Part shown: one piece after another, positions 1 to 30,325 of the stretch
How the letters are laid out: each line of letters starts with the position of its first letter
How positions within the stretch are numbered: the first letter of the stretch is position 1
IMG/VR virus record: IMGVR_UViG_3300047471_000541
Coordinates: 1-64,000 of that record
Length of the DNA stretch: 64,000 bases
DNA from: a virus
Direction: 5' to 3' (one strand)
Program-made: the position numbers and the translations under genes
Notes under the pieces: generated by a model
The model's database searches: none
Told to the model about the DNA's origin: nothing
The model's input: only the letters and a program-made list of their open reading frames with translations

Positions 1-188
1 ATGGCGATGCGTTGGGCATTACGCACGCCGGAAGCGCCGGAGGCAACGACTTCCTCGACGATTGCGGTAGCGAAGCCTGCGCGTGGGGGTGGGGCTTCTT
101 CGATGGTGTCGCGGTAATCGGTTTTAGCCTTGCCTGTGCGCTTGGCGGGGTTGTGGAAGTTATCGAGTTGCTTGGCGTCGGCGCTCAT
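1..188 (-). CDS. Partial leftward gene, N-terminal 62 residues, unknown function
   Basis: Translation begins at the ATG at 188 (MSADAKQLDNF...) and is still open at the window edge, so only 62 residues are visible. The sequence is hydrophilic, has a Pro-rich stretch near residues 32-35, and shows no motif I recognise. No clear Shine-Dalgarno sequence precedes the ATG. The gene is divergent from the rightward block. If the genome is circular or terminally redundant, this gene could lie upstream of the terminase large subunit seen at the right edge, which would make a small terminase subunit a possible identity. That is an inference from position only. Confidence 0.6.
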   Translation of the reverse strand, partial: MSADAKQLDNFHNPAKRTGKAKTDYRDTIEEAPPPRAGFATAIVEEVVASGASGVRNAQRIA

Positions 189-236: not shown

Positions 237-265
237 TTGACTAGGGGGACAAGTAGAGCGATAAG
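237..265 (+). promoter_or_regulatory. Promoter P1 (TTGACT - 17 bp - GATAAG)
   Basis: The -35 box TTGACT is at 237-242 and the -10-like box GATAAG at 260-265, exactly 17 bp apart. An A-rich tract at 215-230, like an UP element, lies just upstream. The same -35/-10 pair with the same spacing recurs at 3538-3566 and 6378-6406, each time followed by a hairpin leader, which supports a genuine promoter family. Confidence 0.75.
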
Positions 266-270
266 GGGGT

Positions 271-294
271 GCGGGGTGTAATCCAGCACGCCGC
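271..294 (+). promoter_or_regulatory. Leader hairpin, loop TAATCCAG
   Basis: GCGGGGTG (271-278) can pair with CACGCCGC (287-294) with one mismatch around the loop TAATCCAG. It lies in the 5' leader made from P1, just before the ribosome-binding sequence AAAAGGAAAACC and the ATG at 311. The same stem and loop recur behind P2 and P3; the P3 copy pairs perfectly. Confidence 0.6.
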
Positions 295-310
295 GAACAA
301 AAGGAAAACC

Positions 311-490
311 ATGAAAATAACGATTGAGGGCGGCATCCTCAAGATAGAAATGCCGATGCAGACGCCGACGCCTTCGGCGAGTGGGAAAACGCTGGTTGTA
401 GCGACGACGCGGGGCAACGTGAAAACGGGTGCGACCGTGGACGGGAAGCCGATAACGCTGGGATTAAACGCTTACATTGCGAACCGATGA
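311..490 (+). CDS. Small conserved-type phage protein, 59 aa
   Basis: The product begins MKITIEGGILKIEMPM and ends in LGLNAYIANR. Start chosen at ATG 311 because AAAGGA lies 6 bases upstream inside the shared leader AAAAGGAAAACC. The sequence is beta-rich with a central TPSASGKTLVVATTRGN segment; I associate this layout with small uncharacterised phage proteins but know no function. It is the first gene of the P1 unit and its stop overlaps the next start (ATGA). Confidence 0.75.
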   Translation: MKITIEGGILKIEMPMQTPTPSASGKTLVVATTRGNVKTGATVDGKPITLGLNAYIANR

Positions 491-696
491 GGGTGTTTAC
501 TGAGCAACAGGCGCAGGAGGCCGCGAGGGCGGAAGTGATCTGGGCGGGGATGGACAAGAACGAGCGCGCAGGGGTGCGGTTTGGGCTGTTTCCTGCTGGG
601 AAGATGCACGAAGCGGAAAAGGAAGGGTTCGACTCGCACGGGCTAGTGTGTGCGCTGATGGATTGCGCGCAGAGGGCTGGGGGGATGCTGGCGTGA
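487..696 (+). CDS. Hypothetical protein, 69 aa
   Basis: Second gene of the P1 unit. Its ATG at 487 overlaps the preceding stop (ATGA), indicating translational coupling. The product MRVFTEQQAQEAARAEV... is soluble and mainly helical, with two cysteines (VCALMDCAQ) near the C-terminus. No domain recognised. Confidence 0.7.
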   Translation: MRVFTEQQAQEAARAEVIWAGMDKNERAGVRFGLFPAGKMHEAEKEGFDSHGLVCALMDCAQRAGGMLA

Positions 697-887
697 TTCT
701 TTCGGAGGTGAAGGAGCGCGCGGATGGGAAATGGAGTTGCACGATAACATTTAGCGGGGGGCGAAACGCCTTTGGGGGGCGCGAGTTCGGGAAAAGTTAC
801 CGCAAGATTGTGGATCGCGAGAAGCTGGAACATTACAAGCGGCTCCACGCACAAACGGCGGAGCAGGAGCAAGCGAGAGAGGGGTGA
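693..887 (+). CDS. Hypothetical protein, 64 aa (GTG start)
   Basis: Starts at GTG 693 within a GTGA overlap with the preceding stop, giving MILSEVKERADGKW... An upstream in-frame start at 648 is less likely because it would overlap the previous gene by about 50 bases. The product is charged, with a Gly-rich centre and a helical C-terminus (KIVDREKLEHYKRLH). Last gene of the P1 unit. No known family recognised. Confidence 0.65.
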   Translation: MILSEVKERADGKWSCTITFSGGRNAFGGREFGKSYRKIVDREKLEHYKRLHAQTAEQEQAREG

Positions 888-891
888 TTGA

Positions 892-950
892 TGCGGTCAG
901 GCGCTGGGGGTTCGATTCCTTCGGCGCTTGGACGCAGTAATTAAGCTGCG
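892..950 (+). promoter_or_regulatory. Structured leader with T-arm-like sequence and AATTAA-loop hairpin
   Basis: Two elements lie in this 82-base gap. First, GGGGGTTCGATTCC (906-919) resembles a tRNA T-arm. Second, CGCAG (933-937) pairs with CTGCG (946-950) around the loop TAATTAAG, directly before the leader GAACGAAAGGAAACC and the GTG at 969. The hairpin fits the pattern seen before other genes of this block. No complete tRNA cloverleaf could be built. Confidence 0.5.
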
Positions 951-968
951 AAGAACGAAAGGAAACCT

Positions 969-1640
969 GTGGAGAAAACGATTGAATTATTGGAGTACAC
1001 GAACCCGCGAACAAGCGCGGTTATAGAGGGGTGGCCGTGGGGGCAGAAGTTGAGGACAACGGCGCGCTTCTTTATTGAGGCGAACAAGTACGGGGAGCGC
1101 GCGGGGCGCATATTGGTTGATCCGAGAAGCGGGCGCGATTGCGCGCCGAAGTTTACGACCTACGCGAAAGCGGCGCGGATTGTAGATGGATCGGATGGCA
1201 GAACGTACATTGCGACGCTTGGTCAATTCAACTTCTCGCTCCAAATCGTGTGCGGGGACATGAAATACACGCGCGAATATCCGCCAGCGGGGGGCGCTGG
1301 GACGCCGGAACACGAGAGGCACGCTCAAATCTTGGCGCTCTTTAGCGCCGAGGCAACGCCCACTGACCCGCCGAAAGGCGGGGAGGTGGCGGGGTTGGAG
1401 CGCGATCTGGGCGATATGCGGGCGATCACCGACGACAGCGAGCCACTGGCGCAAGCCAACGCCGAAGGGCGCGACATAACGCTAGGCGAAGGGTTGGACT
1501 TTTTGCGAGGCGCGGGCGTGCAGGTGGTCGTCTTGGACGATCCCGACACGGTGGCCGAGAAATTGAGCGCGGCCTTTGGAGCGCCAGCGGCGCAGGGCGA
1601 ACCGATCAAGGGGACAAGCGGCGAAGGCGGTGCGGCGTGA
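969..1640 (+). CDS. Uncharacterised phage protein, 223 aa (GTG start)
   Basis: Start GTG 969 follows the leader AACGAAAGGAAACCT. The first 120 residues hold a compact domain (WPWGQKLRTTARFFIE..., then PKFTTYAKAARIVDGSDGRTY); I associate this pattern with an uncharacterised phage family. The C-terminal 100 residues are acidic and low in complexity, ending in Gly/Ala, and probably disordered. The stop overlaps the next gene (GTGA). No enzymatic motif is visible. Confidence 0.75.
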   Translation: MEKTIELLEYTNPRTSAVIEGWPWGQKLRTTARFFIEANKYGERAGRILVDPRSGRDCAPKFTTYAKAARIVDGSDGRTYIATLGQFNFSLQIVCGDMKYTREYPPAGGAGTPEHERHAQILALFSAEATPTDPPKGGEVAGLERDLGDMRAITDDSEPLAQANAEGRDITLGEGLDFLRGAGVQVVVLDDPDTVAEKLSAAFGAPAAQGEPIKGTSGEGGAA

Positions 1641-2050
1641 TTCTCGATCTAGCGCCGAATGAGTTGGAGCTAGTGTTGCGGGCGCTCAGTGATTACGTCA
1701 GCGACACGCGCGAACAGGCCGCGCGGGTTGTGGTCAGGCTCGCCGATCCAGAGGAGGGACACGAAATGGCGCGCTTTTTCCGGCAGGAGTGCGCGGCTGC
1801 GGCGATCCTCCGCGATGCGATCCAGAGCGGCGGGCGCGCGGTGGCCGCGCTTGGGACGCGCGAAGCGTTCAAGGCAGCGGAACACGCGGGCGAAATTGTG
1901 AAGGGCTGCGAAAGCGTGGACGAATTAGACGAAGCGAGCAACTACGAGGGCGCGCTTGCGAATTGTCCCGCCGACTTCACACAGGAGCAGAAGGAACTAG
2001 CGCAAGCGATCATCTTGCGAGCCTTCGAGCGGGCAATCGGGAGAACGTGA
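1637..2050 (+). CDS. Hypothetical helical protein, 137 aa (GTG start)
   Basis: GTG 1637 sits in a GTGA overlap with the previous gene, so the two are probably translated together. The product is Ala/Glu-rich and almost entirely helical (LAPNELELVLRALSDYVSDTREQ..., ending in a QEQKELAQAIILRAFERAIG helix). No catalytic motif or known domain was recognised. Confidence 0.7.
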   Translation: MILDLAPNELELVLRALSDYVSDTREQAARVVVRLADPEEGHEMARFFRQECAAAAILRDAIQSGGRAVAALGTREAFKAAEHAGEIVKGCESVDELDEASNYEGALANCPADFTQEQKELAQAIILRAFERAIGRT

Positions 2051-2065
2051 AAAATTAAACCCACA

Positions 2066-2106
2066 GCGCGCCGAGAAATCGGCGCGCGAGGGTGGAATTA
2101 ACCACC
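2066..2106 (+). promoter_or_regulatory. Tandem leader hairpins before 2126 gene
   Basis: GCGCGCCGA (2066-2074) and TCGGCGCGC (2079-2087) form a perfect 9-bp stem with a GAAA tetraloop. A second stem, GGTGG (2091-2095) with CCACC (2102-2106), encloses the loop AATTAA. No T-run follows, so these are more likely leader structures than a terminator. They precede AACAGGAGGAAACCT and the ATG at 2126. Confidence 0.6.
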
Positions 2107-2125
2107 GAACAACAGGAGGAAACCT

Positions 2126-2416
2126 ATGGGATTAAAAATCAACATTGAAACGGACAACGCGGCGTTCGAGGACAACGCGGGGATTGAGTGCGCGCGAATC
2201 CTGCGAAAAGTGGCGCAGAAAATCGAGGATTGGAGCGGGGCAAATGATTTCTCGCTTGGGCTGCTGGACATAAACGGCAACCGAGTCGGCGAAGCAATCG
2301 GCGAAGCTCAGGAGGAGGAGCGCGAAGTACGCGAGTTCACCAGCGACGACGAGGACGCGCCGCGCGAAGTGCGGGCGTGGAACGAAGGCGAGAGCGACGC
2401 GGAAAGGAACCGATGA
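2126..2416 (+). CDS. Small phage protein, 96 aa
   Basis: Starts at ATG 2126 behind a strong AGGAGG sequence. The N-terminal 60 residues (MGLKINIETDNAAFED..., ARILRKVAQKIE, LLDINGNRVG) have the layout of a widespread small phage protein of unknown function. A very acidic tail follows (QEEEREVREFTSDDEDAP), which is unusual for that core. The stop is joined to the next gene by ATGA. Confidence 0.75.
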   Translation: MGLKINIETDNAAFEDNAGIECARILRKVAQKIEDWSGANDFSLGLLDINGNRVGEAIGEAQEEEREVREFTSDDEDAPREVRAWNEGESDAERNR

Positions 2417-2787
2417 GCCGCATCATTTCCGAACCAGTGGACAGGGAGAGCGTGGAATTTTCCCTTTTCTTCGAGAACCCCGAAAGCAAGGGGAGCGGTT
2501 ACAGCTTTGACAGTGACGAAGCGGGGAACGTGGACGCGGAAAAGCTAAACGAAGTCGCGCGGGCGAACTTCGAGCGGATGCTGGCGGGCGACTGGCCGCG
2601 CGATGTTCGGCGCTTCGAGAGCCACTGGCGCGAGCCAGCGGTAATCGAGTGCGACTGCGGGACGCACCTAGAGCTTTATAGCTCGTGGGCGAACTCCTGC
2701 CAGCGGTGCGGGCGCGAATACAACGGGAGCGGGCAACTGCTCGCTCCTCGGAGTCAGTGGGGAGAGGAAACCGGAGAGAGGTTTTGA
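2413..2787 (+). CDS. Zinc-ribbon phage protein, 124 aa
   Basis: ATG 2413 lies in an ATGA overlap; the longer reading from 2377 would overlap the previous gene. Residues about 88-106 carry two Cys pairs (CDCG ... CQRCG), a probable zinc ribbon, followed by REYNGSGQLLAPRSQWGEET. I recognise this C-terminal block from uncharacterised phage proteins. Function unknown; nucleic-acid or protein binding is possible. Confidence 0.75.
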   Translation: MSRIISEPVDRESVEFSLFFENPESKGSGYSFDSDEAGNVDAEKLNEVARANFERMLAGDWPRDVRRFESHWREPAVIECDCGTHLELYSSWANSCQRCGREYNGSGQLLAPRSQWGEETGERF

Positions 2788-2802
2788 TTGACGCTAACAG
2801 GG

Positions 2803-2849
2803 GCAGCCGCCGAAGGGTTGGCTGCTCTTGTGGGCGGGAATTAACCCGC
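2803..2849 (+). promoter_or_regulatory. Tandem leader hairpins before 2869 gene
   Basis: GCAGCC (2803-2808) pairs with GGCTGC (2820-2825). GCGGG (2834-2838) pairs with CCCGC (2845-2849) around the loop AATTAA. The second hairpin is followed directly by GAGGAACGAAAGGAAACC and the ATG at 2869, the same arrangement as at 2091-2126. Confidence 0.6.
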
Positions 2850-2868
2850 GAGGAACGAAAGGAAACCA

Positions 2869-3240
2869 ATGCAGATTAGCAGATGCAGGAAGAACATAAT
2901 GGGGACGGTGAGCTTTGACGGCAAATGCTCAGGGATGCGGAAAGCGCAGGACTTCATCGTTTACCCGATGCAGGACAGCGGGGAAATCATCACGATCCAG
3001 AGCGACCACCGATTCGGGCAGATAGACCTAGCCAACGGCAAGGGGATATTGAGCGCCAACACGACCGGACACGCGGGCGCGGCGTGGCTTGGGTTGAGTG
3101 TGATGAGAAAAACGGCGGTGGACGTTGAGCTTGCGGCGGAAGATTTGCAGACGCTTCGCCAGTGGGTGAAATCAACGGGCGGGATTCTGGTGGGTTCGTC
3201 CATCGTCAAAAGCGACAATACGGGCGCGCTGGCCTTATGA
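2869..3240 (+). CDS. Hypothetical protein, 123 aa
   Basis: Starts at ATG 2869 after the leader AACGAAAGGAAACCA. The product MQISRCRKNIMGTVSF... is a soluble alpha/beta protein with the segment FIVYPMQDSGEIITIQSDHRFGQIDL and a helix near the C-terminus (AEDLQTLRQWVKSTGG). No domain recognised. Its stop overlaps the next start (ATGA). Confidence 0.75.
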   Translation: MQISRCRKNIMGTVSFDGKCSGMRKAQDFIVYPMQDSGEIITIQSDHRFGQIDLANGKGILSANTTGHAGAAWLGLSVMRKTAVDVELAAEDLQTLRQWVKSTGGILVGSSIVKSDNTGALAL

Positions 3241-3473
3241 GTAAGCGCGCAAACCACGCGCACACGCACCCCTGTTGGCGGCAGGGGTGCGACATGGCGG
3301 CGATCTGTCACCGGAGAGACTGCCACAAAAGCGGCGGATATTGCCGAGCGCACAAACCGTTGCCAGAAGTGGCGACGGTGCGCTGTCCCGATCACCGCAA
3401 CGGTGGCGCGACCAGTTGCCCGCGCGGAGGCGCGGCGCTGCAAATCTGGCAGCGCCGCCAGTGGGGCGACTGA
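3237..3473 (+). CDS. Cys/His-rich small protein, 78 aa
   Basis: ATG 3237 is in an ATGA overlap with the preceding stop, so I prefer it to an upstream in-frame start at 3162. The product has seven cysteines and seven histidines in 78 residues (HPCWRQGC, CHRRDCHKSGGYCRAHK, CPDHRNGGATSC), suggesting two metal sites. It is basic and ends WQRRQWGD. Function unknown; a zinc-binding accessory protein is the most one can say. Confidence 0.65.
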   Translation: MSKRANHAHTHPCWRQGCDMAAICHRRDCHKSGGYCRAHKPLPEVATVRCPDHRNGGATSCPRGGAALQIWQRRQWGD

Positions 3474-3491
3474 CCGGAGAAAATCCTGGCG

Positions 3492-3520
3492 GGCGCGTCC
3501 GAAAAAAAATCGGGCGCGCC
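3492..3520 (+). other. Strong GC hairpin with A8 loop upstream of P2
   Basis: GGCGCGTCCG (3492-3501) pairs with CGGGCGCGCC (3511-3520) with one G-T pair; the loop is AAAAAAAAT. It lies between the stop at 3473 and promoter P2. An A-run rather than a T-run follows, so it is not a standard rho-independent terminator on this strand, although it could still separate the two units. Confidence 0.5.
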
Positions 3521-3537
3521 GGCCAAAAAATAAATTC

Positions 3538-3595
3538 TTGACTGTCGCTTTACTTAGTGCGATAAGAGAGCGCGGGGTGTAATCCAGCACGCCGC
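3538..3595 (+). promoter_or_regulatory. Promoter P2 and leader hairpin
   Basis: TTGACT (3538-3543), a 17-bp spacer and GATAAG (3561-3566) repeat P1 and P3. The spacer CTTTACTTAGT is identical to P3. An A-rich tract (3525-3535) lies upstream. Downstream, GCGGGGTG (3572-3579) and CACGCCGC (3588-3595) form the leader stem around TAATCCAG. The unit then reads AACGAAAGGAAACCA and ATG 3612. Confidence 0.8.
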
Positions 3596-3611
3596 AAACG
3601 AAAGGAAACCA

Positions 3612-3851
3612 ATGTTTAACTCGCACTATAAAGCGAGAAGCGAACGAACCGACGAAGCGGAGCGGGGACTGATCCCCGCGATCCGCCGAACCTACGCGCC
3701 GGAGATTACCCTTGGCGACATGGCCGAGGCGCTCGGCGTGGAATTACAAGCGGAGGACGAACGCCTAATTGAAGCGATGCGCGGCGCGGAGCAGTTGCCG
3801 TACACCTTCGAGGAGGCGCTGGCGCGCAGAGAGGAGGCCAATGTTGATTGA
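3612..3851 (+). CDS. Hypothetical protein, 79 aa
   Basis: First gene of the P2 unit, starting at ATG 3612 after AACGAAAGGAAACCA. The product has a basic N-terminus (MFNSHYKARSERTDE) and then helical segments (ITLGDMAEALGVELQAEDERLIEAMRGAEQ). The phrase LGDMAEALGV could be part of a small helix-turn-helix, but it is too short to assign. It overlaps the next gene by 11 bases. Confidence 0.7.
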   Translation: MFNSHYKARSERTDEAERGLIPAIRRTYAPEITLGDMAEALGVELQAEDERLIEAMRGAEQLPYTFEEALARREEANVD

Positions 3852-4239
3852 GGAAACTGTGGCTTGGTTGCGCGACTACGTGAACGACTGCGAGGAAAAC
3901 TCGAAGTCAGGAAACGAGGCGCGCGAACTGGCCGACGCATTGGAAGCGACCATCGAGGACACGCAACTTTACTTCGTGTGTCCAGATGGGCGCGACGATT
4001 GCGAAATACCAACTTCACCCGATCCAATGCCGCTCTGCGAAGTCGGGGCGCATATTGCGATCCTGCGGAAGATGTATCTCCGGCAGGGGTATTTCTCCAA
4101 CGCGAGGCAAGAGCGAATAGCGCCGAGCGAGCTTTGTTTTAAGCTCGTGCCATACGAGGAAGAACCCGAACGAGTAGCCGACGGCGAAGATGCCGAGGAA
4201 TGGCAGAAGCGCACAGACAGGGAAGGAGGTAGAGGATGA
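3841..4239 (+). CDS. Hypothetical acidic protein, 132 aa
   Basis: ATG 3841 is preceded by GAGAGGAGG, a strong Shine-Dalgarno sequence, so I choose it over the upstream start at 3769. The product MLIEETVAWLRDYVND... is acidic and soluble, with a conserved-looking middle (YFVCPDGRDDCEIP) and a polar tail. No family recognised. The stop is joined to the next micro-gene by ATGA. Confidence 0.7.
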   Translation: MLIEETVAWLRDYVNDCEENSKSGNEARELADALEATIEDTQLYFVCPDGRDDCEIPTSPDPMPLCEVGAHIAILRKMYLRQGYFSNARQERIAPSELCFKLVPYEEEPERVADGEDAEEWQKRTDREGGRG

Positions 4240-4316
4240 GCGACAAGTGGAAAGCCTTTTGGCTCGCTGTGGGGCTGCTGGTGGCGATTGGAATAATTGT
4301 CGCCTGTTGGAGTTAG
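4236..4316 (+). CDS. 26-residue membrane microprotein
   Basis: The reading frame MSDKWKAFWLAVGLLVAIGI ending IVACWS starts at ATG 4236 in an ATGA overlap and has a near-ideal GGAAGGAGGT sequence just upstream. About 17 hydrophobic residues form one membrane segment behind a short N-terminus with two lysines. The strong ribosome site and the coupling argue that it is translated. Role unknown; small phage membrane peptides often act on host envelope proteins or in lysis timing. Confidence 0.6.
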   Translation: MSDKWKAFWLAVGLLVAIGIIVACWS

Positions 4317-4327
4317 TCAGTCGCGGT

Positions 4328-4357
4328 CTGAGCGCGTGGCAGGTGCTACGCGCTCAG
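4328..4357 (+). promoter_or_regulatory. 10-bp leader hairpin
   Basis: CTGAGCGCGT (4328-4337) and ACGCGCTCAG (4348-4357) are perfect inverted repeats around a 10-base loop. It lies between the micro-gene stop and the leader AACGAAAGGAAACC of the 4400 gene. No T-run follows. A weaker stem around AATTAT lies at about 4363-4380. Confidence 0.55.
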
Positions 4358-4399
4358 GACGCGGCGGAATTATCCGTCCGTAAACGAAAGGAAACCTAG

Positions 4400-4999
4400 A
4401 TGAAAAAACTGAACATAGGCGGCGCAACAACCGAAGCGCCGTCGAAGTCCAAGTCAAAACACCCATCGGTAAAAGTAGGCGGGCGACTCGAAGAATTGCT
4501 CAGGCAGTTCGTCGTCGTCAATCCGCAGTTCAAGACCTTGAAGGCACAGCAAGAAACGCTTTCCCGCGATATTGGCGGGGAAACGCGCCCGCTGTTCTTC
4601 GAGTACTTTGCCGGAGTAGTGCCGGAAAGCTCGACCATGCTGGCGAACGTGGGAGGCCGCGACGTTAAGCTGATCGTCAAAGACCGCTACAGCCAAATGT
4701 TGACCGACGACAAGCGCCTGCGCGCTGCGATCGGCGACGAAGTGGTGGACAAGTGGTTCCACTGGCGCACCAAGTACGGGATTGATTACGACAAAATCGC
4801 GGAGGACAAGCAGGAAGCCTTCGCCGCTGGCGTTGAGGAGTTGCGGGTGAAGTTGGGCATCGCTGCCGATGCGATCACCGCGAAACAGTTTGTCGAGCCG
4901 AACGCGGGCTTTCACGAGTCGCGCACAATCACGCTCACACCGGAGCAGAACAAGGCGCTCGACGCTTTGTTGCCTGTGACGGCTTACCCGATGCTCTAA
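4400..4999 (+). CDS. Uncharacterised protein, 199 aa, before the ligase-like gene
   Basis: ATG 4400 follows AACGAAAGGAAACCTAG. The first 25 residues are Lys/Ser-rich and likely flexible. The rest is an alpha/beta domain (VGGRLEELLRQFVVVNPQFKTLK..., DRYSQMLTDDKRLRAAIGDEVVDKWFHWRTKYGID). It overlaps the ligase-like gene at TAATG, so the two are probably co-expressed and may act together on DNA ends, but that is inference. No domain recognised. Confidence 0.75.
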   Translation: MKKLNIGGATTEAPSKSKSKHPSVKVGGRLEELLRQFVVVNPQFKTLKAQQETLSRDIGGETRPLFFEYFAGVVPESSTMLANVGGRDVKLIVKDRYSQMLTDDKRLRAAIGDEVVDKWFHWRTKYGIDYDKIAEDKQEAFAAGVEELRVKLGIAADAITAKQFVEPNAGFHESRTITLTPEQNKALDALLPVTAYPML

Positions 5000-5667
5000 T
5001 GGAAACACTGACGATTGACGCGCTGGAGTTCTATCCCCCAGCGCCGAGCAACGGGGGCGAATTAAGCGAACTAACGCCGCCCAAGGTGGGCGAGTGGGTT
5101 TGGCAACCGAAGGTGGACGATTGGCGCGGAGTAGTGGACGCGCCGAGCGGGGTGGTGTGGTCGCAGTATGGCGATCTGTCCACGATAGCCTTGCAAGGCA
5201 AAATCAAAGCGGCGCTGGCGATCCTGCGGGCGAAGTGGGGCGGTTCAACCGAGCCGTGGCAACGCTTCGACGTTGGACTGATGGAAAACCGTCACGACCT
5301 GATGCGCGGAAGCATCATCATCTTCGACGTAATGGATTCGTGCTGGCCGCACCATGAGCGGCGCGCATGGCTGGAGAGCAAGTTTCCTGTTCTGCCGCTG
5401 GCTCACATCATGCTGGCCGGAGTGGCGAACGTGCGGGACGAAGTGTTCCTGATTAACGAGTGGCGAGAGGATACAAAATCGGAAAAGATGTTTCCGGTTC
5501 CGCTTGAGCCGCTGGCCTTGCAACGCCTACTCAAGCGCGAAAATGACCTCGTGGGACACAAGTTTTACGAGGGTTTGGTGGCGAAGCGCGCCGACGCGCT
5601 TTATCCGGTCGCCACGAAGGCGAAGCAGAAAACGGCGGTGTGGGTAAAGCACAGGTTCGACCAATGA
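4999..5667 (+). CDS. ATP-dependent DNA/RNA ligase-like nucleotidyltransferase, 222 aa
   Basis: Members of this superfamily activate a 5'-phosphate with ATP through a lysine-AMP intermediate. Visible motifs: motif I KVDDWR with Lys38 (the usual form is KxDGxR, so Gly is replaced by Asp); motif III-like IIIFDVM near 106-112; motif IV EGLVAKR at 191-197; motif V WVKHRF with Lys217. The protein ends right after motif V, so there is no OB-fold domain. A minimal ligase, an RNA ligase or an mRNA-capping-like enzyme remain possible. Start ATG 4999 overlaps the preceding TAA. Confidence 0.7.
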   Translation: METLTIDALEFYPPAPSNGGELSELTPPKVGEWVWQPKVDDWRGVVDAPSGVVWSQYGDLSTIALQGKIKAALAILRAKWGGSTEPWQRFDVGLMENRHDLMRGSIIIFDVMDSCWPHHERRAWLESKFPVLPLAHIMLAGVANVRDEVFLINEWREDTKSEKMFPVPLEPLALQRLLKRENDLVGHKFYEGLVAKRADALYPVATKAKQKTAVWVKHRFDQ

Positions 5668-5873
5668 GAGCGCGCTTTCGCATCTACGAGGTTGAACATC
5701 AGGGCGACGAAGCCGAGTCACTTCACGATCTTAGAATAGCGGGGTGTGACAACATCGAGGTTTTGTCGAGGGATTACGAGGGGGAGGAGTCAATCGCGGT
5801 GGCGGTTGACCTCCCCGAAGGCATGACGAATTTTCGCGAGCTAGAACCCAAGCTCGAGTACGCCTGTCTGTAG
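5664..5873 (+). CDS. Hypothetical protein, 69 aa, coupled to the ligase-like gene
   Basis: ATG 5664 is in an ATGA overlap with the ligase-like gene. The product MRARFRIYEVEHQGDEAESL... alternates strands and acidic turns and looks like a small beta-rich domain. Coupling suggests a partner or an independent small early protein. No family recognised. Confidence 0.7.
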   Translation: MRARFRIYEVEHQGDEAESLHDLRIAGCDNIEVLSRDYEGEESIAVAVDLPEGMTNFRELEPKLEYACL

Positions 5874-5884
5874 TTTGTTCCTGT

Positions 5885-5949
5885 CTGCTGGCGGAATGAG
5901 AGAGCGCCTGTGAGCGCCGACCGCCAGCAGCAGGGAGCAATCCAGCTCC
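5885..5949 (+). promoter_or_regulatory. Two leader hairpins before 5968 gene
   Basis: CTGCTGGCGG (5885-5894) and CCGCCAGCAG (5921-5930) are perfect 10-bp inverted repeats around a 26-base loop. GGAGC (5934-5938) and GCTCC (5945-5949) then enclose AATCCA, the loop also found behind P1, P2 and P3. The leader AACGAAAGGAAACCA and ATG 5968 follow. Confidence 0.6.
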
Positions 5950-5967
5950 GATAACGAAAGGAAACCA

Positions 5968-6171
5968 ATGCGAAGAAAGAACAACCAACCAACACCGTTG
6001 ATGGATCGGCTGAAAGCCCAAATCCTAACGTTGGGTGGAGAAATCCCCGCGCCGTGGCCGTGGGCAATAACCGGCAGGAAAGTCAGCAGAGGCAAAGTCG
6101 AGGTCGATGTTGCCCTGTACAACCTGCAACTACTGGAACTGCGGGACGACCTGCTCAAAAAGGCCGCATGA
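5968..6171 (+). CDS. Hypothetical protein, 67 aa
   Basis: ATG 5968 follows AACGAAAGGAAACCA. The product has a basic N-terminus, a Pro/Trp-rich middle (GGEIPAPWPWAITG) and a C-terminal helix (ALYNLQLLELRDDLLKKAA). No domain recognised. It is joined to the next gene by ATGA. Confidence 0.7.
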   Translation: MRRKNNQPTPLMDRLKAQILTLGGEIPAPWPWAITGRKVSRGKVEVDVALYNLQLLELRDDLLKKAA

Positions 6172-6368
6172 CCATCAAGGAAGCGATTGAGAAGGCCGTC
6201 CGCGAGCGCAACTCGGCGCTCGCGGGGCGGATCTGTGACAAGATGCGGTTCGAGCTTGGCGCGACTTACGCGGACGTTGAGTCCAGGTTTGTCGAGGCCG
6301 GGGCTACCAAGAGCGATTTCGAGGCGCTGATGTATTACGCGGATCAGGACGGCGTTCCAAATTCGTAA
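6168..6368 (+). CDS. Hypothetical helical protein, 66 aa
   Basis: ATG 6168 lies in an ATGA overlap. The product MTIKEAIEKAVRERNSALAG... is a small helical protein; the segment ATYADVESRFVEAGATKSDFEAL has a helix-turn-helix-like rhythm, but I would not assign DNA binding on that alone. Last gene before promoter P3. Confidence 0.7.
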   Translation: MTIKEAIEKAVRERNSALAGRICDKMRFELGATYADVESRFVEAGATKSDFEALMYYADQDGVPNS

Positions 6369-6377
6369 AAATAATTC

Positions 6378-6406
6378 TTGACTATCGCTTTACTTAGTGC
6401 GATAAG
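6378..6406 (+). promoter_or_regulatory. Promoter P3 with embedded inverted repeat
   Basis: TTGACT (6378-6383), a 17-bp spacer and GATAAG (6401-6406). TATCGC (6383-6388) and GCGATA (6399-6404) are perfect inverted repeats spanning the spacer and the -10 box, where a dimeric repressor could block polymerase. P2 has the same element with one mismatch. The A-rich GTAAAAATAATTC lies upstream. Confidence 0.8.
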
Positions 6407-6410
6407 ACGA

Positions 6411-6438
6411 GCGCGGGGTGTAATCCAGCACCCCGCGC
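6411..6438 (+). promoter_or_regulatory. Perfect 10-bp leader hairpin, loop TAATCCAG
   Basis: GCGCGGGGTG (6411-6420) pairs perfectly with CACCCCGCGC (6429-6438) around TAATCCAG. Compared with P1 and P2 the stem is longer and the mismatch has been repaired on the 3' arm while the loop is identical, a pattern that fits selection on pairing. AACGAAAGGAAACAC and ATG 6454 follow. Confidence 0.7.
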
Positions 6439-6453
6439 AACGAAAGGAAACAC

Positions 6454-6807
6454 ATGGCAGACAAAATCAAAGACGCGGAACTTCTCAAATCCGCATTAGC
6501 GATGGGCAGCGTGACGCTCGCCGAAGATTGGCGACTAATCACGATCCGAACCATCAGCCCGCGAGTTGTAGATCAACTTCCGTGGTTCGATAGCGCGAAC
6601 GTCGAGGGGTTAATGACGGTCGCCTTCGAGAAACTGGAAACCGTTGGCTTGTCGGAGAAAAGTTACTGCCTCGTGGTTCGCCACGATGGGCAACTCGGCA
6701 AGATTCGGCCTCTTAACTTCCTGATGTGGCTCCGGTCGCATCAACACATGGACGCCGACACGGCACAGGCCGTTCTCCGCGCGCTTCCGCAACTGTTCGA
6801 GGTCTAA
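6454..6807 (+). CDS. Hypothetical protein, 117 aa
   Basis: First gene of the P3 unit, ATG 6454 after CGAAAGGAAACAC. The product is a soluble alpha/beta protein (EDWRLITIRTISPRVVDQLPWFDS..., SYCLVVRHDGQLGKIRPLNFLMWLR). No motif recognised. Its TAA is followed directly by the next ATG at 6808. Confidence 0.75.
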   Translation: MADKIKDAELLKSALAMGSVTLAEDWRLITIRTISPRVVDQLPWFDSANVEGLMTVAFEKLETVGLSEKSYCLVVRHDGQLGKIRPLNFLMWLRSHQHMDADTAQAVLRALPQLFEV

Positions 6808-7032
6808 ATGGAAGAACCAACCAACGGAAACGGGCATCGTATGTCGCGGGTAATCAACCGTGACTACGTGAAACGATGGGCGCTGGATTACTGCCGCGAC
6901 CACGAAATGGTGAGCCGCAGGAAATTCAAGCGGGTCAGTGAAGCGTTCCTCAACATGATCGAGGCAGCAACCAAGAGCGCGATCATTCACCGGATCGAAT
7001 CGCACCCATCGAAAGGACAGACACTCCGATGA
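6808..7032 (+). CDS. Small basic helical protein, possible histone-fold, 74 aa
   Basis: Starts at ATG 6808 directly after the previous stop. The layout is helix (INRDYVKRWALDYCRDH), basic loop RRKFKRVS, long helix (EAFLNMIEAATKSAIIHRIE), then HPSKGQTLR. The order short helix, RVS loop, long helix, and a Gly-Gln/Lys-Thr loop resembles the start of the histone fold (compare the RVS and GRKT loops of archaeal histones), but the third helix is missing. This is a sequence-pattern inference; an ordinary helical protein is equally possible. Joined to the next gene by ATGA. Confidence 0.7.
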   Translation: MEEPTNGNGHRMSRVINRDYVKRWALDYCRDHEMVSRRKFKRVSEAFLNMIEAATKSAIIHRIESHPSKGQTLR

Positions 7033-7574
7033 AGCCACCAACCGACGAATCGGGTTTCTTCCCGACAATCGCGCAGGACTTCGCGGAACAGGCACAGGCC
7101 GACGCGCTCAGGGATCGCCTTGAGCGCGTGGCTCGCCACATCGAGTCGATGCTTTGCTGCTGGGAGGAGTGGGACGGCAACACGGCGATTGTAGTAGGCA
7201 CACGGATCGAGATTGGTTCCACCTTCTCGAAGCTGGCCGTGGACGCGCCGAATTACGACATAGGCTTGCAACCGAAGTTCGCGGGGACAGGCGTTTACGC
7301 TTACATGGCTCCCTGCTTTATCACGGAGGTTCGGGACGCGGAAACATTCGTCGCCCAAATCGATTACCCGCCGGAGGTGACGCACTGTCGCCACCTAAAC
7401 GGCACGAAGCTCCTTCTGGATATTCTGGACGTATGGCCTCCGGTGCGGCTCCTGAGCGCAGACAGGCGGCAAGAGTGCCACCTGTGCGCTCGGGAGCTTC
7501 CGAACCGCGTGGGTAATTGCTGTGTGTGCGGGAAAAACTTGGACGGCGTAATGCCGATCCTCGCGCAAGCATGA
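7029..7574 (+). CDS. Protein with C-terminal zinc ribbon, 181 aa
   Basis: ATG 7029 is in an ATGA overlap. Residues 1-145 form an unrecognised alpha/beta domain (MLCCWEEWDGNTAIVVGTRIEIG...). At about 150-168 two Cys pairs (CHLC ... CCVCG) form a likely zinc ribbon. It may bind nucleic acid or a partner protein. The stop overlaps the following small gene (ATGA). Confidence 0.7.
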   Translation: MKPPTDESGFFPTIAQDFAEQAQADALRDRLERVARHIESMLCCWEEWDGNTAIVVGTRIEIGSTFSKLAVDAPNYDIGLQPKFAGTGVYAYMAPCFITEVRDAETFVAQIDYPPEVTHCRHLNGTKLLLDILDVWPPVRLLSADRRQECHLCARELPNRVGNCCVCGKNLDGVMPILAQA

Positions 7575-7708
7575 GCGCCTACGAGAGAAGATACCACCGA
7601 ACACGCAACGCGCGCCTCCGGCGTTGCGTGTGGTGGCTCCTGCGGGAACTGGGGCGCGATCTGCGAACACTTTTACAACAACAAACCAACATGAAAGGAA
7701 ACCAATGA
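7571..7708 (+). CDS. 45-residue Arg-rich protein with hairpin in its coding sequence
   Basis: MSAYERRYHRTRNARLRRCV... starts in an ATGA overlap (7571) and ends in a second one with the next gene (7705-7708), so coupling on both sides supports translation. Ten arginines in the first 32 residues suggest nucleic-acid binding. Bases 7601-7611 and 7621-7631 within the gene are a perfect 11-bp inverted repeat, possibly the leader hairpin of the next gene. Confidence 0.6.
   Translation: MSAYERRYHRTRNARLRRCVWWLLRELGRDLRTLLQQQTNMKGNQ
7601..7631 (+). promoter_or_regulatory. 11-bp inverted repeat inside small gene
   Basis: ACACGCAACGC (7601-7611) and GCGTTGCGTGT (7621-7631) pair perfectly around a 9-base loop; CCACC (7594-7598) and GGTGG (7632-7636) can extend the stem past a 2-base bulge. 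It lies 70 bases upstream of the ATGAAAGGAAACCA leader of the 7705 gene. Confidence 0.55.
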
Positions 7709-8169
7709 GATTAGACGACAAACCCACGCTCAAGAAATTGCGTGAGGCAATCGACGCGGCACTGATGCTCGCGCGAGTGCCAGAAATGTTCGGCCTGACT
7801 TCGCTCAAAGCTGGCCGGATCAGTTACGATAGCAACGGCCTGAGCGCCAAGATCACGCTCGAAGCGGAAGCCAAATCCGAGGACGGCAAATCCAAGGACG
7901 AAGTGAACTTCGAGAAGTACGCACAACTGTTCGGACTGAAACCCGAATGGCTGCGTAGCAGCTTCAAGCGCGGGCTGGACTCGGTGGAAATCATCGGGCT
8001 TCACCCCAACCGGAGCAAATTTCCGGTTCTGGTGCGAAGTAGCGAGACAGGAAAAAACTTCCTGATCACCGCCGACGAAGTGAAGCGGAAACTCGGCGCG
8101 AAATCAGCGCCACAGGTGTTCGCGGGTTCAATACTCGTGCCACCGTTGGGGAAGGGAGGTGGCGCGTGA
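7705..8169 (+). CDS. Uncharacterised phage protein, 154 aa
   Basis: ATG 7705 follows the leader GAAAGGAAACCA, so I choose it over an in-frame start at 7624. The order KPTLKKLREAIDAAL, a beta segment with SAKITLEAEAKSEDG, a YAQLFGLKPEWLRSSF helix and IIGLHPNRSKFPVLV matches a layout I associate with a common uncharacterised phage protein. It ends GKGGGA; the DNA behind this tail, GGGAGGTGGCGCGTGA, also supplies the ribosome site and GTG start of the next gene. Confidence 0.75.
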   Translation: MRLDDKPTLKKLREAIDAALMLARVPEMFGLTSLKAGRISYDSNGLSAKITLEAEAKSEDGKSKDEVNFEKYAQLFGLKPEWLRSSFKRGLDSVEIIGLHPNRSKFPVLVRSSETGKNFLITADEVKRKLGAKSAPQVFAGSILVPPLGKGGGA

Positions 8170-8813
8170 GCGCCACTTCCGACCAGCCGTCAGGCGAATG
8201 GACGGAAAACACAGTTCGTGAATTAGCTAGTCATCACGATGGAATGAAGCGAGTAGCCGACGCGCACACCACCGCACTCGCCGCCGAGCGGGAGCGAACA
8301 AGGCATTTCGAGTATCAGATGGACTTGCGAATCAAAGACATCCAGCAACTCCGCGAGCAACTGGCGTTAAACGAACATGCGGCCACAGATACAATCGCAA
8401 CATTAGAACGACAACTGGCGGCAGCAGAGAAAGACTCCAATGAGTTACACGAAAAGTTAAAAGATACGCACCGACAATTGGCGGCAGCACAGGCGGAAGT
8501 AGATGCTCATGTCACGCGATGCCGTAACTTTGAAGGCGCACTCGACGCAGCCATAGCCGAAGCAACCAAGGAACTGGCAGATGAACTAAAGTCCACAACG
8601 ACGCAACTTGCCACGGAGCGGCATAATGCAGCCGCAGCACAGAAGTCGCTTGTGGATGCGCTGGAATGGGCGTGGACAATCATAGCCAACGCTGGCGGTG
8701 GCGACTGGACAAAAGAAAGCCAAGACTGGCAAGACGCCGCAGCTAAATGGCGCGACGAGGCATGGCATCCTACACTCGACAAGCTCGCAAAGGTGAAGGG
8801 AGGTGGCGCGTGA
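8166..8813 (+). CDS. Coiled-coil protein, 215 aa (GTG start)
   Basis: GTG 8166 lies in GTGA behind GGGAGG. Residues about 45-165 are a long heptad-rich coiled coil (ERERTRHFEYQMDLRIKDIQ, ATLERQLAAAEKDSNE, KELADELKSTTTQLATERH). A short C-terminal globular part has WAWTIIANAGGGDW and ends in the same KGGGA tail as the upstream gene. Probably a dimeric structural or scaffold-like early protein; no specific function. Confidence 0.75.
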   Translation: MSATSDQPSGEWTENTVRELASHHDGMKRVADAHTTALAAERERTRHFEYQMDLRIKDIQQLREQLALNEHAATDTIATLERQLAAAEKDSNELHEKLKDTHRQLAAAQAEVDAHVTRCRNFEGALDAAIAEATKELADELKSTTTQLATERHNAAAAQKSLVDALEWAWTIIANAGGGDWTKESQDWQDAAAKWRDEAWHPTLDKLAKVKGGGA

Positions 8814-9061
8814 AGCAGGGGCGCACGCGCTTCGGCAATCAACCGGTGCCGACCTATATCCTCGACATGATTCACGATGCAATGCGCGACCTATCGGTCG
8901 CGCGGCGCATCCTACACAACCAACAACGAAAGGAAACCAATGGGAAGAAAAGCACCAAAGAAAAGAACAGGCCGGATAAGTCGCTGGCGCACCAAACGAG
9001 CAGCGCGTCGTCTAGCCAAGAAACGGTGGGGGAAATGAGGCCGCGTGAAGTGGACTGCTGA
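8810..9061 (+). CDS. Hypothetical polar protein, 83 aa (GTG start)
   Basis: GTG 8810 is in GTGA behind GGGAGGTGG. The first 45 residues (MKQGRTRFGNQPVPTYILDM...) look like a real small domain. The rest (QRKETNGKKSTKEKNRPDK, then Ser-rich) is the out-of-frame reading of the next gene's leader and coding region and may be tolerated rather than functional. It overlaps 8940-9038 completely in another frame. Confidence 0.5.
   Translation: MKQGRTRFGNQPVPTYILDMIHDAMRDLSVARRILHNQQRKETNGKKSTKEKNRPDKSLAHQTSSASSSQETVGEMRPREVDC
8884..8903 (+). promoter_or_regulatory. 8-bp hairpin, loop TATC
   Basis: GCGCGACC (8884-8891) and GGTCGCGC (8896-8903) pair perfectly around TATC. It precedes AACGAAAGGAAACCA and the start of the tiny basic gene at 8940, matching the hairpin-plus-leader arrangement of this block. 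Confidence 0.6.
8940..9038 (+). CDS. 32-residue highly basic protein
   Basis: MGRKAPKKRTGRISRWRTKR... (32 residues, 16 of them Arg or Lys) starts at ATG 8940 directly behind AACGAAAGGAAACCA, the best copy of the block's ribosome-binding leader, with a hairpin 37 bases upstream. These signals argue for real translation despite its size and its location inside the 8810 frame. The charge suggests nucleic-acid binding or condensation. No family recognised. Confidence 0.6.
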   Translation: MGRKAPKKRTGRISRWRTKRAARRLAKKRWGK

Positions 9062-9239
9062 ATACGTGCAGGAGTTGAACCGGAAAGGTTGCCAGCACAC
9101 AGCCGACGTACACAACGACGAAATGGAACGGGTCGAGAAAACCATTCACCAAATCGCGCAATTAGTAACCAACACAGCCGGAGCAATCCATAACCGGATC
9201 GGCGAACTAGAAAGGATAAAGCATGTTAAGCACTACTGA
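9045..9239 (+). CDS. Helical protein, 64 aa (GTG start)
   Basis: GTG 9045 gives MKWTAEYVQELNRKGCQHTA... The product is helical with several histidines (HTADVHNDEMERVEKTIHQ) and may form a coiled coil. It overlaps the end of the 8810 frame and, by 17 bases, the next gene. No Shine-Dalgarno is obvious; GGGGGAAATGAGG lies upstream. Function unknown. Confidence 0.55.
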   Translation: MKWTAEYVQELNRKGCQHTADVHNDEMERVEKTIHQIAQLVTNTAGAIHNRIGELERIKHVKHY

Positions 9240-9423
9240 GTTAGTCCAGAAATACGTGGGCAAAAAAGTCCTGTGGGAGCCGCTGGCCGGATTGAAGGTG
9301 CAGGTCGAAACAGCAGACGTTCGGCGCGCCTTCGGGCGAATCGACGTCCTGATCCGACCGCTACTGGATCACGGCACAGGCGAAGCGTGGGTTGACAGTA
9401 ACAACATCGAGTTGCAGGGTTAG
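9223..9423 (+). CDS. Hypothetical protein, 66 aa, last rightward gene
   Basis: ATG 9223 is preceded by AAAGGATAAAGC. The product MLSTTELVQKYVGKKVLWEP... is a small beta-rich protein ending DSNNIELQG. No family recognised. A rho-independent terminator follows 20 bases after its stop. Confidence 0.7.
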   Translation: MLSTTELVQKYVGKKVLWEPLAGLKVQVETADVRRAFGRIDVLIRPLLDHGTGEAWVDSNNIELQG

Positions 9424-9442: not shown

Positions 9443-9474
9443 AAGGGCGTCGGAGGCAACTCCGGCGCCCTTTT
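9443..9474 (+). terminator. Rho-independent terminator ending the rightward block
   Basis: AAGGGCGTCGGA (9443-9454) pairs with TCCGGCGCCCTT (9461-9472) with one G-T pair around GGCAAC, followed by TTTT (9471-9474 overlaps the stem end). It lies between the convergent genes ending at 9423 and 9480. The opposite strand lacks a comparable T-run after the stem, so it mainly serves rightward transcription. Confidence 0.85.
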
Positions 9475-26396: not shown

Positions 26397-26716
26397 TTCG
26401 GGTACTCGAGTAATTTGTCGATGCGCGCACAAATCTCGCGCACATCGGCTACGTCAGAGTCGAGCCGAGCGTGCATGAGCGCCTTGGCTTGCAGTTCCTT
26501 GATCGGTCCGATCAGTTCATGGTAGGCGCCAGCCCAAATCGCCTTGCGAACTTCACGCGCCATTTTGAGGCGAAACTCAGCGGCGTTCTCCACGTACAAT
26601 TTCGACGCTCTGGACATGGTGAAGCAAGCTACCAGTGGCAACGTGGCTACAACGCGCGTTTCCTGCGTCGAATCGAAATCGGTTGTTTGATACTGCGTTT
26701 TGAGGAAGTCGATCAT
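26393..26716 (-). CDS. Hypothetical protein, 107 aa
   Basis: MIDFLKTQYQTTDFDSTQET... with helical C-terminal half (HELIGPIKELQAKALMHARL, DVREICARIDKLLEYPK). ATG 26716 in ATGA with the J-domain gene. No motif recognised; possibly a small regulatory or structural helical protein of the operon. Confidence 0.65.
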   Translation of the reverse strand: MIDFLKTQYQTTDFDSTQETRVVATLPLVACFTMSRASKLYVENAAEFRLKMAREVRKAIWAGAYHELIGPIKELQAKALMHARLDSDVADVREICARIDKLLEYPK

Positions 26717-27279
26717 TTCACTAGCTCCAATGCCATTTCCCGCGCCTCGGTCAGTTGCCGGAAGGCGTCGGCGTTCCCGCCCGTGTCAGGGTGCGCTTCG
26801 CGGAGCTTTGACCTATAGGCGGATTGAATGGAGTGCTGGGTCGCGCCAGAGAGCGAAATGCCGAGAACGTCCCAACAAGACGGTCCCGTTTTTTCTTCCA
26901 GCGCGGTGAACCCGCTGAACATGGCGCGAATCATGTGCTTGGCGCCCCACCGTTCCATGCCGCGCATGGCCTCGATGGTGAGCGCGATCGCGCGCACGTT
27001 GGCTTCGATCCGGTTCCACCGGTCGCACGGCATCGCCACCTGTTTGCCCTCGTAGTCGAAATAAGCGACGACACCCGACTCCTTCGGGTTGGTGTTCCCC
27101 AGCGTGTAGTTGCTGGATAACACCACGTTTTTACCGCCCAGCCGGCGCACTTCGTCGTAGAGACTTTGAAGTGCGCCGGCCACTGTCACCTTCTGGAAGC
27201 GCGATCCGGATTCACGCTTGCCAGCTTCGGTTTTCGGCCAGCCCCTCGGCCACTGTAAGGGATAGGCTCGCGCGCTCAA
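26713..27279 (-). CDS. J-domain (DnaJ-like) protein, 188 aa (TTG start)
   Basis: The C-terminal 34 residues are a J-domain fragment with HPD at 163-165 (KLREAHPDTGGNADAFRQLT). HPD stimulates the ATPase of host Hsp70 (DnaK). The N-terminal 130 residues (AYPLQWPRGWPKTEAG, YDEVRRLGGKNVVLSSN) form a separate domain seen in phage J-proteins. TTG 27279 overlaps the upstream stop (TTGA). It likely recruits DnaK to the replication complex or virion assembly. Confidence 0.7.
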   Translation of the reverse strand: MSARAYPLQWPRGWPKTEAGKRESGSRFQKVTVAGALQSLYDEVRRLGGKNVVLSSNYTLGNTNPKESGVVAYFDYEGKQVAMPCDRWNRIEANVRAIALTIEAMRGMERWGAKHMIRAMFSGFTALEEKTGPSCWDVLGISLSGATQHSIQSAYRSKLREAHPDTGGNADAFRQLTEAREMALELVK

Positions 27280-30168: not shown

Positions 30169-30325
30169 TTGATTGGTTTCCTTTCGTTTGTTTGATCGGC
30201 ACGAGCTTCCGATGCTTTTCGAGGTATTCCGCGAACGCCTGTTGCGCCAGCCAGTTTACGCTGCGCTCCATGTCCTCCGCGAGATACCGGAAAGGCAAAG
30301 GAATTTCGACTGCTACCCGCGCCAT
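30137..30325 (-). CDS. Possible small protein, 62 aa
   Basis: MARVAVEIPLPFRYLAEDME... is helical; the last 20 residues are read from the SSB-like leader. ATG 30325 has no Shine-Dalgarno; a palindrome (30327-30341) lies directly in front. It overlaps the SSB-like gene by 32 bases. The N-terminal 40 residues look plausible as protein. Confidence 0.45.
   Translation of the reverse strand: MARVAVEIPLPFRYLAEDMERSVNWLAQQAFAEYLEKHRKLVPIKQTKGNQSNASSNRQGRR

What the first reader, a model, noticed from the sequence alone, without database searches (positions are those of the whole stretch)
237..8942. Recurrent RNA leader module: hairpin plus AACGAAAGGAAACC before about ten rightward genes
Directly before starts at 311, 969, 2126, 2869, 3612, 4400, 5968, 6454, 7705 and 8940 there is a stem-loop and then a near-constant leader (core AAAGGAAACC). 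Loops fall in two groups: AATTAA (933-950, 2091-2106, 2834-2849) and AATCCA (271-294, 3572-3595, 5934-5949, 6411-6438). Stems differ while loops stay fixed, and at P1, P2 and P3 the pairs change together, which is the signature of a conserved RNA structure. This could be a phage-wide translation or stability element, and the two loops could mark two regulatory classes.
Basis: partly seen in the sequence, partly recalled or inferred. Interest (0 to 1): 0.7.

Follow-up and report, generated by a model that had tools for sequence, protein, structure and literature searches.

The report
Shared hairpin leader of phage early genes
In an uncultivated phage, and in one relative, almost every separately translated group of early genes starts with the same kind of small RNA hairpin just before its ribosome-binding site; it is a real, repeated control element, probably protecting or regulating early messages, but of a broadly familiar sort.

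Summary
The element is real but narrower than claimed. Eight of the ten listed starts (311, 969, 2126, 2869, 3612, 4400, 5968, 6454) have a hairpin whose 3' arm ends 4-8 nt before an AAAGGA-type ribosome-binding site. The loop is AAUCCA (4), AAUUAA (3) or AAUUAU (1). Starts 7705 and 8940 carry only the leader: they overlap an upstream ORF. Dinucleotide shuffles give 1.1 hairpins of 10 (maximum 5 in 2000; observed 8) and 0.0055 AAU-hexaloop hairpins (maximum 1). The eight hairpins sit at the starts of all eight gene groups of the rightward early block. The linear 'leader' is essentially a Shine-Dalgarno site.

Two forms exist. At 311, 3612 and 6454 the hairpin lies at the predicted mRNA 5' end, 4-5 nt after a TTGACT-17-GATAAG promoter. 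The other five directly follow a longer GC-rich hairpin without a U-tract. A relative (52-67% protein identity) has both forms at all four of its long early gaps, with different stems and mostly different loops. Nothing matches Rfam; no module was found in the late genes or in more distant relatives.

Best reading: a 5'-UTR hairpin that shields each early translation unit and leaves its ribosome-binding site open. A loop-binding regulator is the main rival.

The parts
237..265 (+). promoter-like TTGACT-17-GATAAG, 5 nt before the hairpin of unit 1
   Evidence: recurs at 3538 and 6378, nowhere else in the window
271..294 (+). hairpin B of unit 1 (GCGGGGUGU-AAUCCA-GCACGCCGC, one G-G mismatch)
296..313 (+). 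leader AACAAAAGGAAAACC and start codon 311
897..931 (+). long hairpin A before the second hairpin (14 bp; loop UUCGAUU)
   Evidence: z -3.6 for the leader
933..950 (+). hairpin B of unit 2 (CGCAGU-AAUUAA-GCUGCG)
954..971 (+). leader AACGAAAGGAAACC and GTG start 969
2066..2087 (+). long hairpin A (GCGCGCCGA-GAAA-UCGGCGCGC)
   Evidence: z -6.8
2091..2106 (+). hairpin B of unit 3 (GGUGG-AAUUAA-CCACC)
2111..2128 (+). leader AACAGGAGGAAACC and start 2126
2794..2833 (+). long hairpin A
   Evidence: z -4.4
2834..2849 (+). hairpin B of unit 4 (GCGGG-AAUUAA-CCCGC)
2854..2871 (+). leader and start 2869
3538..3566 (+). promoter-like TTGACT-17-GATAAG
3572..3595 (+). hairpin B of unit 5 (GCGGGGUGU-AAUCCA-GCACGCCGC)
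3597..3614 (+). leader and start 3612
4328..4357 (+). long hairpin A (CUGAGCGCGUGGC-AGGU-GCUACGCGCUCAG)
   Evidence: z -5.6
4363..4378 (+). hairpin B of unit 6 (GGCGG-AAUUAU-CCGUC); its 5' arm can also pair with an outer stem of hairpin A
4383..4402 (+). leader and start 4400
5881..5933 (+). long hairpin A
   Evidence: z -4.1
5934..5949 (+). hairpin B of unit 7 (GGAGC-AAUCCA-GCUCC)
5953..5970 (+). leader and start 5968
6378..6406 (+). promoter-like TTGACT-17-GATAAG
6411..6438 (+). hairpin B of unit 8 (11 pairs, loop AAUCCA)
   Evidence: z -6.1
6439..6456 (+). leader AACGAAAGGAAACAC and start 6454
7690..7707 (+). leader only (no hairpin B); start 7705 overlaps the upstream ORF
8925..8942 (+). 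leader only (no hairpin B); start 8940 lies inside ORF 8810-9061
9445..9474 (+). intrinsic-terminator-like hairpin followed by TTTT, closing the rightward block
   Evidence: read from the sequence; not flagged by the scan, which needs five T

Best explanation
It is a cis-acting 5'-UTR cassette of the phage's early mRNAs: a short hairpin (B) directly followed by a single-stranded A-rich Shine-Dalgarno site. It marks the start of every early translation unit that has an untranslated gap in front of it. Most likely hairpin B is a structural shield. In the promoter-borne copies it sits at the 5' terminus of the transcript and would hinder 5'-end-dependent decay. In the tandem copies, the long hairpin A closes the upstream message and hairpin B guards the next unit after cleavage or in read-through RNA. 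The open Shine-Dalgarno sequence then gives each unit strong, independent initiation. Shown: position, structure beyond chance, two architectures, presence in a relative. Inferred: the 5' ends, processing between A and B, and protection.
For: All seven gaps between early units (75-138 nt) and the stretch before 311 carry hairpin B; genes inside units overlap or abut and have none. Observed 8 of 10 hairpins against 1.09 in shuffles. In the relative L061, 4 of 4 long-gap leaders have hairpins against a shuffled mean of 0.20. Three promoters TTGACT-17-GATAAG lie 4-5 nt before a hairpin and occur nowhere else in the window. Tandem leaders fold with z -3.6 to -6.8, with A and B adjacent (0-3 nt apart in most copies). 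The stems vary but stay paired. The Shine-Dalgarno site is mostly unpaired (0.67-0.96 in the window). 5' hairpins are known to stabilise bacterial mRNA by hindering RppH conversion (PMC3997798).
Against: A pure shield does not need a fixed loop, yet within this genome all loops begin AAU while the stems differ. No 5'-end or half-life data exist. The host and its RNases are unknown, and no relatives were found in cellular genomes. Keeping hairpin B single-stranded in silico does not lower Shine-Dalgarno accessibility, so an 'insulator that opens the ribosome-binding site' role is not supported.
Confidence: 0.5

Rival explanations
1. Hairpin B is an operator for an RNA-binding protein, phage or host, that reads the AAU-type hexaloop and controls translation or decay of the whole early block together.
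For: Within the genome, loops stay AAU(CCA/UAA/UAU) across six clearly different stems. The site is 4-8 nt from the Shine-Dalgarno sequence, where a bound protein would affect initiation. T4 gp43 operators also combine a hairpin of variable length and conserved loop bases upstream of the start (PMC3014915). Position 3 of the hexaloop is U in 11 of 11 aligned hairpins of both genomes.
Against: In the relative, loops differ (CGUCCA, UGUCCA, AAUGAC, AAGAA), so the loop is not conserved across lineages. No candidate RNA-binding family was recognised among the proteins tested.
Confidence: 0.28
2. The modules are mainly recombination or duplication joints (mobile regulatory cassettes, as proposed for T4-type PeSLs). 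Copies look alike because they were duplicated, and any regulatory role is secondary.
For: The three promoter-borne copies are near-duplicates. The same gene (4400 and its orthologue at L061:10457) has a tandem module in one phage and a promoter module in the other. Similar modules (5934 and L061:11956) precede unrelated genes.
Against: Five of the eight copies have clearly different stems, so simple recent duplication does not explain them. Pairing was kept as the stems diverged, which indicates selection on the structure.
Confidence: 0.12
3. The hairpins act on RNA polymerase as antitermination or anti-pausing signals (nut, put or ANTAR-like).
For: They lie at the 5' end of early operons and recur along them. 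HK022 put RNA is also two adjacent stem-loops (PMC9378689). ANTAR targets are hexaloops with A at position 1 (PMC8934654).
Against: The promoter-borne copies have one hairpin at the 5' end and no room for a boxA in front. ANTAR loops need G at position 4; it is C or U in all eight window loops. No ANTAR domain was found in the phage or relatives, though that search had no positive control. No strong U-tract terminators lie between the units for such a signal to overcome.
Confidence: 0.06
4. Chance hairpins in GC-rich gaps next to an ordinary Shine-Dalgarno site.
For: About 20% of 32-mers in the same region hold some hairpin of this strength.
Against: 8 of 10 against 1.09 expected; AAU hexaloops 0.0055 expected; 4 of 4 long-gap leaders in the relative.
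Confidence: 0.01

Closest known systems
5'-terminal stabilising stem-loops of bacterial mRNAs (ompA, papA, bla with an added 5' hairpin, aprE)
   Same: a hairpin at or near the mRNA 5' end followed by an open ribosome-binding site; the promoter-borne copies put it at about +1
   Different: repeated before every early unit, with a nearly fixed loop; tandem copies lie inside a polycistronic region; stability not measured
T4 and RB69 gene 43 translational operator (gp43 binding site)
   Same: a hairpin with conserved loop bases upstream of the ribosome-binding site of an early phage gene
   Different: a hexaloop AAUNNA/U rather than the UAAC-containing loop, eight copies in one genome rather than one, no known binder
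T4-type PeSLs (promoter early stem-loops)
   Same: repeated promoter plus stem-loop cassettes in early gaps at joints where genes differ between relatives
   Different: here the hairpin is downstream of the promoter and transcribed, has no U-tract, and five copies have no recognised promoter; the primary PeSL papers were not held, so this comparison rests partly on memory
HK022 put RNA
   Same: two adjacent stem-loops near the start of early transcripts (tandem copies)
   Different: promoter-borne copies have one hairpin; adjacent to a Shine-Dalgarno site; eight copies
ANTAR dual-hexaloop motif
   Same: hexaloop with A at position 1; tandem hairpins
   Different: position 4 is C or U, not G; the first hairpin is not a hexaloop; no ANTAR domain detected

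Membership tests
5'-terminal mRNA-stabilising stem-loop | stem begins within a few nt of the transcript 5' end | tested here: inconclusive
   Met by prediction for the three promoter-borne copies (stem starts 5-6 nt after the -10 hexamer, about +1). The five tandem copies would need processing. No mapped 5' ends.
5'-terminal mRNA-stabilising stem-loop | hairpin lengthens mRNA half-life | not testable with these tools
   needs RNA decay measurements
T4-type PeSL | early promoter combined with a terminator stem-loop | tested here: not met
   Hairpin B lies after the promoter and before the Shine-Dalgarno site, without a U-tract; five of eight copies have no promoter of this type.
ANTAR target RNA | hexaloop with A1 and G4, usually dual (PMC8934654) | tested here: not met
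   A1 met 8 of 8 in the window, G4 met 0 of 8; first hairpins are not hexaloops
ANTAR target RNA | an ANTAR-domain protein is present | tested here: inconclusive
   no PF03861 match in G000, G005, G007 or G009, but the control genomes rang nowhere; the host is unknown
HK022 put RNA | two stem-loops of about 70 nt near the early promoter | tested here: not met
   promoter-borne copies carry one hairpin; tandem copies are not promoter-proximal
lambda-type nut site | boxA followed by a boxB hairpin in the leader | tested here: not met
   in promoter-borne copies the hairpin starts at about +1, leaving no space for boxA (sequence)
T4 gp43-type operator | bound by a protein that represses translation | not testable with these tools
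   no binder known; needs binding assays
any Rfam family | covariance-model score above the gathering threshold | tested here: not met
   0 matches in the whole window; only chance-level weak hits with relaxed threshold

The most novel reading that the evidence does not exclude
The hexaloop hairpins form an early RNA regulon: one phage-encoded RNA-binding protein reads the AAU hexaloop next to the Shine-Dalgarno site of all eight early units and switches them together. In related phages the loop and the protein have changed together.
Probability: 0.2. Interest if true: 0.65.

Novelty: new variant of a known kind. Interest (0 to 1): 0.42.

Why it matters
If real in vivo, a whole early gene block is built from separately led translation units, each with the same transcribed hairpin. 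That would be an unusually regular post-transcriptional design, in a phage group without cultured members in the collections searched. It gives a defined, testable RNA element (stem, loop, spacing) and a possible small part for stabilising or regulating mRNAs.

Tried and rejected
Leader motif as a broad phage signal: 45 viral contigs with AACGAAAGGAAACCNATG share no common upstream hairpin. Gapped patterns AATTAA or AATCCA plus leader in viral contigs returned only one true copy, L085, which is identical to the window over the 2019 bases they share.

Distant relatives by major head protein (about 45% identity, L069-L079): hairpins near Shine-Dalgarno-like sites have unrelated loops.

The promoter scan of the standard tool found none, because GATAAG lacks the final T; the promoters are called by recurrence instead.

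Intrinsic terminators: the long hairpins lack a U-tract. Kissing of the UCC loop with the GGA of the Shine-Dalgarno site: only 3 bp and absent from AAUUAA loops. A role in keeping the Shine-Dalgarno site open: constraint folding shows no gain.

Cellular hosts: two genome scans found no relatives. Phage records: the 4400 protein and the major head protein had no match.
Full report
Setting. The window is 64 kb of a 67,860-base virus record whose last 127 bases repeat the first 127, so the genome is probably complete at about 67.7 kb. Genes at 311-9423 run rightward. Nearly everything after 9.5 kb runs leftward (head protein, helicases, amidase, a 5244-codon ORF). No cultured relative was found: the 4400 protein and the head protein have no match in 50,697 phage records, and two protein scans of 84,980 species genomes found nothing. 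'Early' is my inference from the promoters and the small, replication-unrelated-looking genes; no time course exists.

Observation. I checked all ten starts. Eight have a stem-loop whose 3' arm ends 4-8 nt before the AAAGGA core. Loops are AAUCCA (311, 3612, 5968, 6454), AAUUAA (969, 2126, 2869) and AAUUAU (4400). Shuffling the ten upstream 32-mers while keeping dinucleotides gives on average 1.09 hairpins of this strength, at most 5 in 2000 trials; AAU hexaloops appear 0.0055 times on average, at most once. Among 8210 other 32-mers of the same region and strand, 20% hold some hairpin but none has an AAU hexaloop. The hexaloop hairpins are therefore not chance.

Where they sit. Translating the block gives tightly packed gene groups with overlapping or abutting ends: 311-887, 969-2050, 2126-2787, 2869-3473, 3612-4316, 4400-5873, 5968-6368 and 6454-9423. 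The eight hairpins stand at the eight starts of these groups, that is in every gap of 75-138 nt plus the stretch before the first start. The two listed starts without a hairpin, 7705 and 8940, lie inside the last group and overlap an upstream ORF. The leader sequence alone also occurs once on the late strand (30175-30188 minus) without a hairpin. Hairpin and linear leader are separable; the linear part is best read as a strong Shine-Dalgarno site.

Two architectures. (P) At 311, 3612 and 6454 a promoter-like TTGACT-17-GATAAG ends 4-5 nt before the stem. This pattern occurs nowhere else in the window or its remainder. The predicted transcript would begin at the base of the hairpin. (T) At 969, 2126, 2869, 4400 and 5968 there is no such promoter. 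A longer GC-rich hairpin A stands directly before hairpin B with 0-3 nt between (at 4400 an outer stem of A competes with the 5' arm of B). These leaders fold with z-scores of -3.6 to -6.8. Hairpin A has no U-tract and so is not an intrinsic terminator, whereas the end of the block (9445-9474) has a hairpin followed by TTTT.

Relatives. The head protein found 15 loci. One record, G005 (46,910 bases; L061), covers the early region, with orthologues of the 4400 protein (67%), the following ligase-like protein (58%) and the 7705 protein (52%). Its four long-gap leaders all have hairpins near the Shine-Dalgarno site: CGAGG-CGUCCA-CCUCG and GCCGG-UGUCCA-CCGGC after promoter-like sequences (P), GGUGG-AAGAA-CCACC and GGAGC-AAUGAC-GCUCC after a long hairpin A (T). 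Shuffles give 0.20 of 4, none reaching 4 in 2000. The orthologue of gene 4400 has a P module there and a T module here, and similar modules stand before unrelated genes, so modules and genes are partly exchangeable. L066 and L067 repeat the same leaders as L061 and add no independent evidence. More distant relatives (about 45% head-protein identity) show no such module.

Structure versus sequence. On an alignment of 11 hairpins, 98% of cells pair, with 15 double changes and a covariation score of 0.84 against 0.19 shuffled and at most 0.13 for slid versions. This is partly circular because the hairpins were found by pairing; the positional tests above are the independent evidence. Within the window the stems differ at most positions while the first three loop bases never do, which suggests that the loop matters. 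Between the two phages the loops differ, except for U at position 3 of every hexaloop.

Mechanism. The best-supported reading is a 5'-UTR hairpin that shields each early unit and leaves an open Shine-Dalgarno site. It is known that 5' hairpins hinder RppH conversion and stabilise mRNA (PMC3997798). The step from tandem hairpins to processing between A and B is inference. Predicted accessibility of the Shine-Dalgarno site is high with or without hairpin B, so opening the ribosome-binding site is not its likely task. The loop constancy keeps open an operator for an RNA-binding protein, analogous to but not shown to be like the T4 gp43 operator (PMC3014915).

Known kinds. No Rfam family matches. 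ANTAR targets need A1 and G4 (PMC8934654); G4 is absent from all eight loops. HK022 put RNA has two stem-loops (PMC9378689), the P form has one. A nut site would need boxA before the hairpin, for which the P form has no room. T4-type PeSLs combine early promoter and stem-loop and mediate shuffling (cited in PMC4503421; primary papers not held). The exchangeability is similar, but the hairpin here is transcribed after the promoter and has no U-tract.

Verdict. A real RNA leader element of early genes in a small uncultivated phage group, in two architectures, with one independent relative to support it. New in sequence, familiar in kind; its function is undetermined.

Noticed in passing
window 1-127 and L082:3734-3860: The record's last 127 bases repeat the first 127 exactly, so the contig is probably a complete, circularly closed or terminally redundant genome of about 67.7 kb.
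   Followed up: partly
window 897-931: The long hairpin before start 969 has a tRNA T-arm-like tip (GGGGGUUCGAUUCC). No tRNA gene is found in the window, whereas the relative L061 has a tRNA-Met at 5032-5103 minus.
   Followed up: partly
window 8940-9038 and 7571-7708: Small Arg/Lys-rich ORFs (MGRKAPKKRTGRISRWRTKRAARRLAKKRWGK; MSAYERRYHRTRNARLRRC...), possible nucleic-acid-binding peptides; the first has a perfect leader but no hairpin.
   Followed up: no
window 4999-5667: ORF with the look of a minimal ATP-dependent DNA ligase (motifs KVDDWRG, IIFDVM, YEGLVAK, VWVKHRF, recalled from memory); no Pfam hit at 0.001.
   Followed up: no
window 45838-61572 minus: One open reading frame of 5244 codons in a 68-kb phage.
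   Followed up: no
window 26713-27279 minus: Protein with a DnaJ domain at its C-terminal end (PF00226, above the cut-off).
   Followed up: no
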